A stretch of 64,000 nucleotides of DNA from Brassica napus. Lineage: Eukaryota; Streptophyta; Magnoliopsida; Brassicales; Brassicaceae. Positions 46,705-63,765 of this stretch are shown in pieces (within the stretch, counting starts at the first letter, position 1; each line of letters opens with the position of its first letter). The notes below the pieces were generated by a model, which was not told the origin of the DNA, did not search any database, and saw nothing but the letters and a program-made list of their open reading frames with translations. Position numbers and translations under genes: made by a program. Where the stretch lies: positions 9,836,466 to 9,900,465 of the forward strand of contig NC_063439.1 of NCBI RefSeq assembly GCF_020379485.1. The letters are read 5' to 3'.

Positions 46705-47702
46705 ATGAAGTTGGTGATTTTCATCTCGTTGTTGCTTGTATTTCCATTGTGTTCTTCAGGTATTCACAAATTACGTTATCAAAATCCATCTCTAAGTATA
46801 ACACATTAATTAAACTTTAAGAATTAAAATAGAATACACTACAACATCTGTTTCAAATTAATATATGTATTAAAAAAATTCGCGTATGTTAAGAAAAACA
46901 ATGGTTTAGCATTTTAGCAATTTAGTAAATTCATTTTTAAGTTTACAATGTATCATCATCAAGACATCAACTAATAAATATATTTCATTTTTCTTAAAAA
47001 ATAATTATTTTAAATCAAACAGCATTTATGAAAACTATAAGAAAGTTGTTTTTAAGTCTATATAAATAGTTGTAACCATTTACCCAAGTTCTGGTGTAGT
47101 TTATACGGATTTCAAAATTTTAATAATATATTTGATTTCAGTAGAAATACTAATATACACCTTTGATTATATTAACAAAAATAAAAATATATACATGTAC
47201 ATATATATATATATATATATTTGCATTTGCATCTGCTTTTTCGTAGGATTTGAAAAGGACGATGAAGTTACTCAAGTCAGCCAACATTCATCAGACAAGG
47301 TAAGCAACAGAATTACATGTTCAGTCTTATTTTTTGTCAACTTATGATAATAAAAATAATATTAAGCTGCGACTAAATTTGGTCAAACTAGAAAACGATT
47401 ATGGTGTTTTTTTTTCTTCTAGATTATATTTTCTCTTTACCATGAAATGACACTATTTTCGAATTATCTTTAATGTTTGCTAAATATATCAGTCCAAAAC
47501 TGTCGTGGTTTATATAAATCTATAAAAAAAATTTAAAACTAATGGTGGTGCAAAATATGTAATGCAGGTTGTTGACAACCTGATGGACTATGGATACTTA
47601 TTACCTCCCCCTCCCAGAAGTCCACGACCTCCTCACGCGTCGCCCACTGATCCTCCACCGCCGCCACCACCGCATCCACCAATAAATGATATTTTACAGT
47701 AA
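46705..47702 (+). CDS. Small secreted proline-rich peptide precursor, copy A
   Basis: Three exons, 46705-46759, 47247-47299, 47568-47702; 80 aa. A clear signal peptide (MKLVIFISLLLVFPLCSS) is followed by an acidic linker GFEKDDEVTQVSQHSSDK and a C-terminal exon with VVDNLMDYGYLLPPPP, then SPRPP, a run of seven prolines and the end INDILQ. All splice sites are GT-AG and phases agree. No cysteines in the mature part. The layout (signal peptide, variable acidic spacer, short conserved C-terminal block with a DY site for possible tyrosine sulphation and many prolines for hydroxylation) resembles precursors of post-translationally modified plant signalling peptides; the function is unproven. I recall a proline-rich gene at the collinear Arabidopsis position (about At3g49300). 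Confidence 0.75.
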
Positions 47703-47875
47703 AGGAGAAATATATGTAATAATGGATCAGTCTTATCATTAATTGTAATAGCAATTATGTCATAGTAATCCATGACTAGACTGTCTAAATATAAATTTAT
47801 TAAGAGACTTATCGTCATTAAACAAATAATATATTTTCAAAGATAGAAATTCAACAAGCAGGTTTTTTTCTGATG

Positions 47876-48394
47876 TATTTACAAAATCGTAAACAATCTG
47901 TTATTGATCTGAATCGAAGCTAAAATAGCATTGAACCAGGAAAATCCAGTATTCGGAATGCTAAATTACCGGTTTGACCAGTTTACCTACATAACCAAAC
48001 CGGTACGACTGATCCTGCAGAGTGTTTAAGCAGAGCTTTTTTTTTGCTCAAAAAGACAAAAGATCACCGGGTGTGGGCAAAAGTCACGCGCTACCATTAA
48101 GCTAAGACTGCTTTGATAGCAGAGTTACGGAAATTTAACGGCTTCTATTCACGGTGTCGCTTCGTCTCTTGATTTCTCCCTTTACGGTGATACTTTTTTG
48201 ACGATTATTTTCATCTTCGTCGTCGGATTCAACAGCAATCAAACCTCTGCTTCTTCTGTATCCATCGCACGTTTCTCAATATGCTCCTTCTCCTGAATCT
48301 ACAACATTCATGGCTCATATGATTCCTCTAATGGTAGGAAAGTACTCTCTTGAAGTTTTTTTTTCAAGATTCTGTTAAACTCTCTCTGTACATA
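47876..48394. other. Spacer with a possible foreign gene leader
   Basis: The part 48130-48394 is less AT-rich than its surroundings and looks like a leader or first exon (short open stretch MAHMIPLM followed by a GTAGGAAAGT donor at about 48332). It abuts the truncated MFS fragment. No family recognised. Confidence 0.3.
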
Positions 48395-48400
48395 ATTGGC

Positions 48401-48817
48401 TGTCTGCATCATCTTGTACAACGTAAGAATAAGTCCGGTCTTCTTCTTCTTCACATAAATCTTTTTGTTTCTTTTTTACTATAAAAAATCTTGTGGTTGT
48501 GCAGGTTGATGTGTTTCCGATCACAATCATGTTTGGTATGTGCTCAATCTTCGTCTTCGTAGCTTCTATATTACAACGGCGCCTTATGGTCATCTCCGAA
48601 AACCCAAGTGCGTTACTTCTTCTCTTACGGTCTTATAATCTTAAAGAATAGGATTTCAAGTTGTGTTAGCCTTTGTGGTAAATGGTAATGCCTTACTATA
48701 AGACCTCTGTATGTTTGTGTACTTGCAGAGGGAGAAGAGCGGAGTCCAATGAAGGAGCGAGACTCAGAAGTTGACCCTCTTTTACCCTCTGATTATGTTC
48801 CTTTCAGTATTTCTTAG
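48401..48817 (+). pseudogene. 3' fragment of a duplicated MFS5-like transporter
   Basis: Copies the last 22 bases of exon 6 (48401-48422), exon 7 (48505-48607) and exon 8 (48729-48817) of the gene at 35097-37368, with introns. Exon 7 is intact (VDVFPITIMFGMCSIFVFV). In exon 8 an extra base after the EVDPL codons removes the normal stop, so the frame runs on to a stop at 48815-48817. Everything 5' of the exon 6 end is missing, so it cannot make a transporter. Confidence 0.9.
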
Positions 48818-61250: not shown

Positions 61251-62575
61251 TAAATTTTATATATGAAAATGCATAATAGTTTACAGTATCTTTAAATATA
61301 CTAAATATTTTGAGTACCTTTAAATGTAAATGCTTTTATGTAAAAAAATATTAACTAGCTGTCTGATGCTAGTTTAAAGAAGCTGTTTTTTTTTCAATTT
61401 GTATTTCATATTCATAAGTTATTTCAGTTTTGATAAGTCACTGCCAGATGTTCGTTGCTAATTTTTTTAAACTATTTTGTTTTTTCATAGAAGTAAGAAT
61501 TCTATAAATTAATAGTGTTAGATTTCAATATTTTCTAGTTTATAGAATTATTAATTTACATAATTGTTTTTAGATTTTAAATATTTTTAAATATAATTTA
61601 TGTAATATTTGTGAAGAATACTTGATTTTACGATATAAGTATTGATTAAATTTTATACATAAAATTTTTATATTATCTTTTTTATATATAACAACTAGGT
61701 TATTATTAATAGATGGAGCTTACATAGTTAAAGTGTAGATTATTTGAAAAAGAATATTGAAACAAAATAATAATAAAAATAAGAGCTATGGTATATTATA
61801 TTGGTTTTATTCGATTATATGATTATATGGTGTTAACATAGTAATAGTAGCTACTTTTAAGAGTGAATTGGAAAAAAAACATCAATACATTTAGAAATAT
61901 ACAAATAGTTATTATATTTATATAAAATTCATATTAAATAATTATTAATTTATCTTTACATTAGGATTATTATATTTACATTAAAAATTTAATTTTTTTA
62001 TTATCTCATTTCTTTTAGCGAATTATGTCGTATTTTACATTGTCCCAACTTATGATTGGCTGAAATTTATTAATTTATGTAACGCCACTCTGTTTTTAAC
62101 GTTATAAAATAACTATATAAATAATTTTATTTCAATATTTTTTATTGATAAAATTTTATTCTATTCATTCTTATTTTTTAAATGATAGACTAACTAACTA
62201 AAATTTAAAATATTCTATAGTTTAAAAGTTTTTTAAATATTTGTAGAACCCGCAAAAAGTGGACAAATTTTGCTAAGAAGTTTTTTGGAAAAAAAAACAC
62301 TGTTCCACTTTCAAAATCTTAATAAATGTTTTTAGATTTTTTACTTAAGATGTTACTCTAGCAAATCTCTACAAAAAGAAAGTGCAAGTAACAAAAAGGT
62401 TAAATGAAAAGAGACTATAAATTGGAGATAGATGACACCATAAAAGTCATCTTCTCCACATTCATCACAAAATAAGCATATTCATTTTTGTTATTTCATC
62501 TTACATCCCATAGCTTGTTTTAAAAGAATTTCAGTCCCTTCAAATACCGTTTCATAGAAACGTGCATCCACAAGG

Positions 62576-63081
62576 ATGAAGTTGTTGATTTTCATCTCGT
62601 TGTTGCTTGTATTTCCATTGTGTTCTTCAGGTATTCACAAATTACATTAGCAAAATTCATATCTAACTATAATACATTAATTAAAATTAAAGAATTACAA
62701 TTAAATATACTACAACATCTGTTTTTTTTAGATTAATATATGTATATATGAGCAAAAAGTTTCAGGTATATTAAAAATATATTAATTTAGTTATAAATAA
62801 ATTATTTTGTGATTGATAGTTTCTCATAAAGTTTTAGCAATTTAGTCATTTTTTATTTAGTAAATTCATTTTGAAGTTTACAATTTATCATCATCAAGAC
62901 AATCTTTAAGAAAATTATAAGAAATTTGTTATTTTATTTTATTTAAAAAATATAAATAGTGGTAACAATTTAATACCCCAAGTTCTACTGTGATTTATAT
63001 GGATTTCAAAATTTTAATAATATTTTTTGCTCAATAGAAATATTAATATACAACTATATTAAAAAAATTAAAATATATACA

Positions 63082-63161
<80 letters not shown>

Positions 63162-63765
63162 TTTTACATCTGCATCTATTTTTTCTTAGGGTTTGAGAAG
63201 GACGATGAAGTTACTCAAGTGAGTCAACATTCATCAGACAAGGTAAGCAATAAAATTACATGTTCAATTCTTATATTATGTTAACTTATGATAGTAAAGT
63301 AATATTAAGCTGACGACTAAATTTGGTCAAACTGGAAAACGGTTATGTTTTTTTTTCAGATTCTATAATTTTTTACCATGAAATAAGTCAATAACACTAT
63401 TTTCGAATTATCTTTAATGTTTGCTAGATATATCAGTGCAAAATTTTAGTTTTTTTATATTTTGTTTGTTAAACTCCTTTTAATTTATATGTCTGCCAAA
63501 ATTGTCTGAATTTGGCTATCTTACCTAATTAAAAAAAAAAAAAACTAATTACTATTGGAGACCCTTACTATTGTCATTGTTTAAATAAATCAATTTATTG
63601 TTGGTGGTGCAAAATATACTTATAATGCAGGCTACATTTAGTGTTGAGAGAATGATCGACTATCCAGGCCCATTTAATCCAACTCCCATAATTGTTCGGC
63701 CTCCTCACGGGCCCCTTACTGATCCTCCACCGCCACCACCACCGCGTCCAACAAAAACTGATTGA
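62576..63765 (+). CDS. Small secreted proline-rich peptide precursor, copy C
   Basis: Exons 62576-62630, 63190-63242, 63631-63765; 80 aa, GT-AG introns and matching phases. Signal peptide MKLLIFISLLLVFPLCSS and linker GFEKDDEVTQVSQHSSDK are nearly the same as in A. The C-terminal exon differs strongly: ATFSVERMIDYPGPFNPTP, then IIVRPPHGPLTDPPPPPPPR and the end PTKTD. It keeps an acidic-DY site and the proline run but replaces the GYLLPPPP core by PGPFNPTP, and stops seven bases earlier in the aligned tail. TATAAAT lies 160 bases upstream. This looks functional and may yield a different mature peptide. Confidence 0.72.
63085..63160. repeat. Long (TA)n microsatellite in intron 1 of peptide gene C
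   Basis: About 75 bases of pure TA; shorter runs stand at the same place in gene A (47198-47220) and, broken, in gene B. Confidence 0.92.

What the first reader, a model, noticed from the sequence alone, without database searches (positions are those of the whole stretch)
46705..63765. Cluster of three intact small secreted proline-rich peptide genes
Three genes with identical three-exon structure encode 79-80 aa precursors: signal peptide, acidic linker, and a C-terminal exon with an acidic-DY site and long proline runs. They are separated by kilobases of transposon DNA yet all keep open frames and splice sites, which suggests selection. The layout matches precursors of modified plant signalling peptides (tyrosine sulphation, proline hydroxylation), but no known family is matched with certainty.
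Basis: partly seen in the sequence, partly recalled or inferred. Interest (0 to 1): 0.75.

Follow-up and report, generated by a model that had tools for sequence, protein, structure and literature searches.

The report
Offshoot of PSY sulfated-peptide genes
Three neighbouring cabbage-family genes for small secreted peptides are fast-changing relatives of the plant signal gene PSY7: they keep its secretion signal, linker and tyrosine-modification site but have lost its defining peptide motif.

Summary
In detail: three complete three-exon genes lie at the stated places and encode precursors of 80, 79 and 80 aa.

The family is not unknown. Signal peptide, acidic linker, exon phases and DY site are homologous to Arabidopsis PSY7. 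The window's neighbours carry the domains of genes numbered next to PSY7/PSY9 in Arabidopsis. A canonical PSY gene of the same layout lies about 16 kb past the window, another on contig C243.

The peptide differs. All 9 branch members scanned keep DY and all 9 lack the PSY motif DYxxxx[AP]NxxHxP. After DY, c1-c3 score no better against PSY peptides than shuffles; canonical genes do. Exons 1-2 change significantly less than intron 1 in 4 of 6 gene pairs; exon 3 changes as fast or faster in 5 of 6.

I read them as an exon-3-rewritten offshoot of PSY7/9 precursors, seen so far only in Brassica and Raphanus, probably still sulfated, receptor unknown. Decay is a serious rival: the apparent homoeologue has an in-frame stop. 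Expression was not testable.

The parts
46705..46759 (+). c1 exon 1, signal-peptide-like MKLVIFISLLLVFPLCSS
47247..47299 (+). c1 exon 2, acidic linker GFEKDDEVTQVSQHSSDK
47568..47702 (+). c1 exon 3, VVDNLM-DY then proline-rich tail, with stop codon
55395..55449 (+). c2 exon 1
55958..56010 (+). c2 exon 2
59080..59211 (+). c2 exon 3 (acceptor TGTAG|CCG)
56122..58789 (.). insertion in c2 intron 2, absent from c1 (edges: where c1-c2 similarity stops and resumes)
62576..62630 (+). c3 exon 1
63190..63242 (+). c3 exon 2
63631..63765 (+). c3 exon 3, ATFSVERMI-DYPGPFNPTPIIVRPPH..., ends before the NDILQ end of most relatives
46505..46704 (+). 200 bp upstream of c1 (95.5% to c2, 88.0% to c3)
45865..46621 (+). 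upstream region of c1 partly present twice (45865-46235 ~ 46227-46621, 85.8%)
36967..37404 (+). stretch from inside the last MFS_5 ORF to beyond it, matching 48401-48828
48401..48828 (+). second copy of that stretch, between c1 and c2; marks the tandem duplication
49991..51421 (+). copia-type gag ORF in the c1-c2 spacer
34991..37027 (+). ORFs with MFS_5 domain pieces; anchor for AT3G49310 (MOT2.3)
30447..32342 (+). papain-type cysteine protease ORFs; anchor for AT3G49340
33211..33777 (-). PMEI-domain protein; anchor (AT3G49330 as PMEI is recalled)

Best explanation
The three genes are tandem duplicates of a precursor gene at the PSY7/PSY9 locus. SHOWN: signal-peptide-like N-terminus, linker, exon phases and DY site homologous to PSY7; fitting neighbourhood; absence of the NxxHxP part of the PSY motif; slow exons 1-2 with fast exon 3. 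INFERRED: each precursor enters the secretory pathway; TPST sulfates the tyrosine of the DY site; prolines after it are hydroxylated and perhaps arabinosylated; subtilases release a peptide starting at DY that acts as an apoplastic signal, perhaps in seeds, where PSY9 is expressed. Because the receptor-facing half has been rewritten, the peptide probably no longer works as an ordinary PSYR ligand: it has a narrowed or new receptor, or a weakened role.
For: A. thaliana P0010 is taken as PSY7 because it is 78 aa and contains the published DYPEPGPNPIHDP; it was found with a profile of the L011 relative plus the two published core peptides, so that search was not blind. Direct comparison of PSY7 with c1: 23/47 identical, E=1e-13; with P0005: 18/42, E=2e-8. 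Linker alone against PSY7: 0/2000 shuffles for each of c1, c2, c3, also with DY held fixed. Same 55-nt exon 1 and same phases in intact canonical genes of this genome: d1 (DYPPTGPNPGHDP) and psy7_C (DYEEPGPNPGHDP). Neighbour domains MFS_5 and C1 protease fit AT3G49310 and AT3G49340. Relatives in B. rapa, B. carinata, Raphanus; the seven window-type rows of a 16-row tree are one side of a branch, 100/99. Exons 1-2 versus intron 1: p=1e-6 (c1-c3), 7.8e-6 (c2-c3), 0.004 (c3-c4), 0.037 (c1-c4). PSY9 in inflorescences, siliques and seeds, as told in PMC11534595 (passages).
Against: No expression, peptide or receptor data. The part after DY of c1, c2, c3 scores no better against PSY peptides than shuffles (2403, 2781, 788 of 3000). 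The C475 copy has an in-frame stop, while canonical d1 reads intact on both C159 and C475. Exons 1-2 are not significantly slower than intron 1 in c1-c2 (p=0.37) and c2-c4 (p=0.25). Orthology of the neighbours was judged by domain, not by comparison with Arabidopsis sequences. Neither PSY9 nor AT3G49307 was recognised among the hits of any protein search.
Confidence: 0.58

Rival explanations
1. Decaying duplicates: after tandem duplication the copies are dispensable; exon 3 drifts neutrally and the intact frames are mostly luck and youth.
For: Exon 3 differs at about the intron rate or faster in 5 of 6 pairs (e.g. c1-c3 34/126 vs 110/466, p=0.48). Stop-free exon 3 is expected in 32-87% of neutral simulations. 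The C475 copy has an in-frame stop; the second PSY-type gene on C475 is frameshifted in exon 3; the C243 relative L010 lacks the AG at the exon-2 acceptor used in L011 and L012.
Against: Exons 1-2 are slower than intron 1, significantly in 4 of 6 pairs, and the 200 bp upstream stay 88-95.5% alike. The sixth pair, c3-c4, has a slow exon 3 (10/135; dN/dS 0.39). 9 of 9 branch members scanned keep DY, though several are near-copies. P0006 has a residue where C475 has the stop, so open copies exist. The L010-like B. oleracea protein P0008 is annotated with a shifted junction.
Confidence: 0.28
2. New-receptor reading: the rewritten peptide has moved towards CIF-type ligands (GSO1/GSO2), a PSY precursor carrying a CIF-like peptide.
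For: B. carinata P0005 (DYGDFNPTPRI...) matches CIF3 better than all 3000 shuffles, with choice of the best CIF reference allowed in the shuffles too. DYG...P.P occurs in 4 of 20 sequences: c1, c2, P0004, P0005. CIF peptides as given in PMC11534595 (passages).
Against: For the window's own copies the CIF match is not significant: c1 284, c2 475, c3 273 of 3000; likewise P0001 189, P0002 443, P0006 237. The N or H that ends CIF peptides at position 21-23 is not there in c1-c3 (read by eye). P0005 is one of 13 sequences tested.
Confidence: 0.07
3. Cell-wall role: the proline runs are hydroxylated and arabinosylated like extensins and the protein acts structurally.
For: Runs of seven prolines near the end of c1 and c3.
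Against: Run length varies between close relatives (P0001 has four fewer prolines than c3); A. thaliana PSY7 itself has a six-proline run near its end; no Pfam wall family.
Confidence: 0.05

Closest known systems
PSY7 (AT3G49305) and PSY9 (AT3G49300), plant peptides containing sulfated tyrosine
   Same: PSY7: signal peptide, acidic linker, MDY site, proline run near the end; neighbourhood by gene number. PSY9 only by locus: its full sequence was not seen.
   Different: NxxHxP part of the motif absent; exon 3 rewritten, proline-rich and fast-changing.
L010-L012 relatives (B. rapa P0007, B. oleracea P0008) and Cardamine P0011
   Same: PSY7-like precursors that also lack the full PSY motif. By linker, Cardamine P0011 is the best match of c1, c2 and c3 (scores 64, 58, 71 against 41, 38, 45 to PSY7).
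   Different: They keep DYPxPxPN, which the window copies do not, and lie on the other side of the branch from the window-type proteins.
CIF/TWS1 peptides
   Same: DY start followed by prolines; DYG...P.P in c1 and c2.
   Different: No significant match for c1-c3; CIF-type end not seen; precursor part is PSY7-like.
PROSCOOP family (Brassicaceae-specific)
   Same: Small secreted precursors in tandem clusters with transposon remnants, two or three exons (PMC6382344, passages).
   Different: No serine-rich SCOOP-like end seen by eye in exon 3; precursor homology lies with PSY7.

Membership tests
[quoted passage not shown]
   0 of 9 window-branch members; 4 of 20 sequences in all (P0010, P0012, d1_A, psy7_C). 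Same result with N or D allowed, as published PSY9 has D
PSY peptides | DY sulfation site | tested here: met
   DY in 20 of 20 sequences scanned; sulfation itself not tested
PSY peptides | 60-200 aa precursor with secretion signal | tested here: met
   79-80 aa; N-terminus aligns with that of PSY7; no signal-peptide predictor was available
PSY peptides | Common ancestry of the precursor part with PSY7 | tested here: met
PSY peptides | Recognition by PSYR1-3 | not testable with these tools
   needs binding or root-growth assays
CIF peptides | Mature peptide resembling CIF1-4/TWS1 | tested here: not met
   c1 284, c2 475, c3 273 of 3000 shuffles as good; of 13 sequences only B. carinata P0005 stands out (0/3000)
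PROSCOOP | Conserved C-terminal SCOOP motif | tested here: inconclusive
   read by eye on the translations; no motif model run
AT3G49307 orthologues | Sequence similarity to AT3G49307 | not testable with these tools
   its sequence was not obtained; only its place by number, between PSY7 and the MFS gene, fits

The most novel reading that the evidence does not exclude
A PSY precursor has been re-used as a chassis: signal, linker and sulfation site are kept under constraint while the receptor-binding half was replaced and diversified in Brassica and its kin, giving peptides, perhaps of seeds, with a new receptor, possibly of the GSO/CIF type, or acting as antagonists of sulfated-peptide signalling.
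Probability: 0.12. Interest if true: 0.72.

Novelty: new variant of a known kind. Interest (0 to 1): 0.42.

Why it matters
Two PSY surveys seen here (PMC7913133, PMC11641228, passages) used the DYXXXX[AP]NXXHXP motif as an entry test, so offshoots like this would be missed. The locus holds canonical and rewritten copies in one genome, which makes it possible to test how a sulfated peptide changes or loses its receptor after duplication.

Tried and rejected
Pfam: no family for c1 and c3; for c2 one hit far below its cut-off (E=0.1), taken as chance. PDB by sequence with c3: two mitochondrial ribosomal protein S5 sequences, E=0.011 and 1.5, taken as proline-rich chance matches. PROSCOOP was considered for its tandem layout and dropped once PSY7 was found. 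CIF resemblance: a first test per reference looked suggestive (e.g. c3-CIF2 4/500, P0005-CIF3 0/500); the stricter test did not hold for c1-c3. RGF peptides as a further set: none of the 13 sequences clearly beat its shuffles (295 of 3000 at best). "Open frames prove selection" rejected. Positive selection on exon 3 is not claimed: dN/dS 0.89 (c1-c2), 1.65 (c1-c3), 1.31 (c1-c4), 1.12 (c2-c3), 0.83 (c2-c4), 0.39 (c3-c4), on small counts; exons 1-2 in the same order 0.25, 0.06, 0.34, 0.18, 0.52, 0.79; L011-L012 show no slow part at all (5 nonsynonymous, 0 synonymous in exons 1-2; 5 and 1 in exon 3). The N/S contrast between exons was tested in four pairs: p=0.011 in c1-c3, 0.56, 0.17 and 0.6 in the others. 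Promoter word scan, 500 bp upstream of c1-c3: no RY and no GCN4 word; ACGTG at -16 in all three, TGTAAAG in c1 and c2; no conclusion drawn. Genome search with the c3 exon-3 peptide: 3 matches, itself, C475 and one chance-level match on C243 (E=1.5). Papers: searches listed no paper devoted to PSY genes of Brassica; most subscription papers are not held, so this is no proof of absence. PMC13197225 does not use the word PSY in its main text.
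Full report
OBSERVATION. The window lies in a 997-Mb genome, contig C159. Three genes are complete: c1 46705-47702, c2 55395-59211, c3 62576-63765, each with exons of 55, 53 and 132-135 nt, phases 1 and 0, GT-AG introns. Products are 80, 79 and 80 aa.

WHAT SURROUNDS THEM. The genes are tandem segmental copies: 46227-47414 matches 54920-56121 (89.1%) and 46228-47499 matches 62139-63443 (76.1%). A stretch that begins inside the last MFS ORF and runs past it (36967-37404) recurs at 48401-48828 (92.7%), so the duplicated unit probably reached into that gene. 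The c1-c2 spacer also holds a copia gag ORF, and c2 intron 2 an insertion of about 2.7 kb. Neighbouring ORFs carry DUF4005, papain-protease, PMEI and MFS_5 domains, in that order towards the genes. AT3G49310 is MOT2.3 of the MFS (PMC10397214, passages) and AT3G49340 a cysteine protease (PMC6960232, passages). AT3G49370 appears in a table of calcium-dependent kinases and partners (PMC6471108, passages); the window ORF at 22877 looks to me like a kinase N-terminus of that kind but matched no Pfam family. AT3G49330 as PMEI and an IQD gene beyond are recalled. PSY9 is AT3G49300 and PSY7 AT3G49305 (PMC11534595, passages). If gene numbers follow position, as they do by convention (recalled), the PSY pair sits beside the MFS gene there as the window genes do here. 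No Arabidopsis neighbour sequence was compared.

RELATIVES. Protein search with c3 gave 6 hits among 8 candidates: B. carinata (P0001, P0005), Raphanus (P0002), B. rapa (P0003, P0004) and a 955-base contig (P0006). In this genome a fourth copy, c4, lies on C475, probably the homoeologue; it has an in-frame stop at the seventh codon of exon 3, where P0006 has a residue. More distant relatives of the same exon layout lie on C243 and C1 (L010-L012). L010 lacks the exon-2 acceptor AG of L011 and L012; a near-identical B. oleracea protein, P0008, is annotated with a shifted junction. A search with the L011 product gave P0007-P0009. A profile of the L011 product plus the PSY7 and PSY9 core peptides gave 6 proteins: P0007, P0008, P0009, A. 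thaliana P0010 (78 aa with DYPEPGPNPIHDP, hence PSY7) and a shorter form P0012, and Cardamine P0011. PSY9 and AT3G49307 were not recognised among the hits. Searching the genome with PSY7 gave 15 matches, among them an exon of a canonical PSY7-type gene on C243, two genes on C159 at 9916533 and 9918585, 16-18 kb past the window end (9900465), and their counterparts on C475. Gene models: d1 (canonical, intact; its C475 counterpart also reads intact by eye), d2 (motif not canonical; intact on C159, exon 3 frameshifted on C475), psy7_C (canonical, intact). PSY9 itself was not compared with d1 and d2. An exon 1 on C485 has no exon 3 found in the 8-kb locus.

HOMOLOGY TEST. c1 against PSY7: 23/47 identical, E=1e-13 for the single comparison, signal peptide included. 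Without the signal peptide, the linker up to DY scores 41, 38 and 45 for c1, c2 and c3; 0 of 2000 shuffles reach this in each case, with or without DY held fixed. The linker is closer still to Cardamine P0011 (64, 58, 71; 0 of 2000). Weaker: P0005 against d1 (223 and 516 of 2000) and against L011 (19 and 42). In a 16-row tree (P0003, P0006, P0009 and P0012 left out as partial or variant rows) the seven window-type proteins are one side of a branch, 100/99, in 100% of 200 bootstrap trees; the order among PSY7, Cardamine, psy7_C, d1/d2 and the L010-L012 type is unresolved, and the root is drawn at the midpoint.

THE PEPTIDE HAS CHANGED. DY is present in 20 of 20 sequences scanned; the PSY motif in 4 of 20 (P0010, P0012, d1_A, psy7_C), in 0 of 9 of the window branch (c1, c2, c3, P0001-P0006; P0003 and P0004 are near-copies of c3 and c1; c4 was not scanned) and in 0 of 5 of the L010-L012 type; allowing D for N changes nothing. 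Against published PSY peptides, the part from DY on is matched or beaten by 2403 (c1), 2781 (c2) and 788 (c3) of 3000 shuffles. Controls behave: d1 6, psy7_C 0 and P0010 1 of 3000 (its own PSY7 entry removed). d2 gives 90, L011 85 and P0011 25. Against CIF peptides c1-c3 give 284, 475 and 273 of 3000; of 13 sequences only P0005 stands out, 0 of 3000.

SELECTION. Exons 1-2 differ less than intron 1: 5/108 vs 110/466 (c1-c3, p=1e-6), 7/108 vs 124/501 (c2-c3, p=7.8e-6), 4/108 vs 65/504 (c3-c4, p=0.004), 7/108 vs 67/486 (c1-c4, p=0.037); not significant for c1-c2 (4/108 vs 30/476, p=0.37) and c2-c4 (9/108 vs 61/480, p=0.25). Exon 3 differs more than intron 1 in five pairs: p=0.015 (c1-c2), 0.48 (c1-c3), 0.067 (c2-c3), 0.00064 (c1-c4), 7.7e-5 (c2-c4); c3-c4 goes the other way (10/135, p=0.097). 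The pairs are not independent, and c4 is broken. dN/dS of exon 3 is 0.89, 1.65 and 1.12 within c1-c3, 1.31 and 0.83 for c1-c4 and c2-c4, 0.39 for c3-c4. This fits diversification or relaxed constraint of exon 3 after duplication and cannot separate the two.

MECHANISM. In PSY1 the tyrosine of DY is sulfated, two prolines are hydroxylated and one of them is arabinosylated; subtilases are proposed to release PSY peptides (PMC7913133, passages). PSYR1-3 restrain growth in the absence of ligand (PMC10519359, first of two parts read). I infer that the first steps still apply, since DY and the precursor part are kept, and that recognition has changed. Site of action: PSY9 is reported in inflorescences, siliques and seeds and mainly in seeds, PSY7 as minimally expressed (PMC12642490, a preprint, passages). 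AT3G49307, between PSY7 and the MFS gene by number, marks chalazal endosperm (PMC13197225, passages). That the window genes are AT3G49307 orthologues is a guess from position; its sequence was not seen.

VERDICT. A real gene cluster, correctly seen. A known precursor type whose peptide part has been rewritten: a new variant of a known kind, with decay as the main rival.

Noticed in passing
L026 2537-5126 (C159, about 16-18 kb past the window end): Two PSY-type genes in tandem; the first canonical (DYPPTGPNPGHDP), the second with the motif altered (DYPGPHPDPRDNP).
   Followed up: yes
L027 (C475), minus strand: Counterparts of that pair: the first reads intact, the second is frameshifted after the DY core.
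   Followed up: partly
L028 4104-5019 (C243): Intact canonical PSY7-type gene with the same three-exon layout, DYEEPGPNPGHDP.
   Followed up: yes
L029 4010-4292 (C485): Orphan signal-peptide exon with a possible exon 2 (by eye); no exon 3 found in the locus; sequence beyond looks to me like an inserted retroelement.
   Followed up: no
P0005 (Brassica carinata): DYGDFNPTPRI... matches CIF3 better than 3000 of 3000 shuffles, unlike the window's own copies.
   Followed up: partly
window 37911-39202 and 41828-42905: AT-rich block of degenerate direct and inverted repeats (families of 13 and 14 copies of 114 and 72 nt units) between the MFS gene and c1.
   Followed up: no
window 45865-46621: Part of the region upstream of c1 is duplicated in tandem (85.8%).
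   Followed up: no
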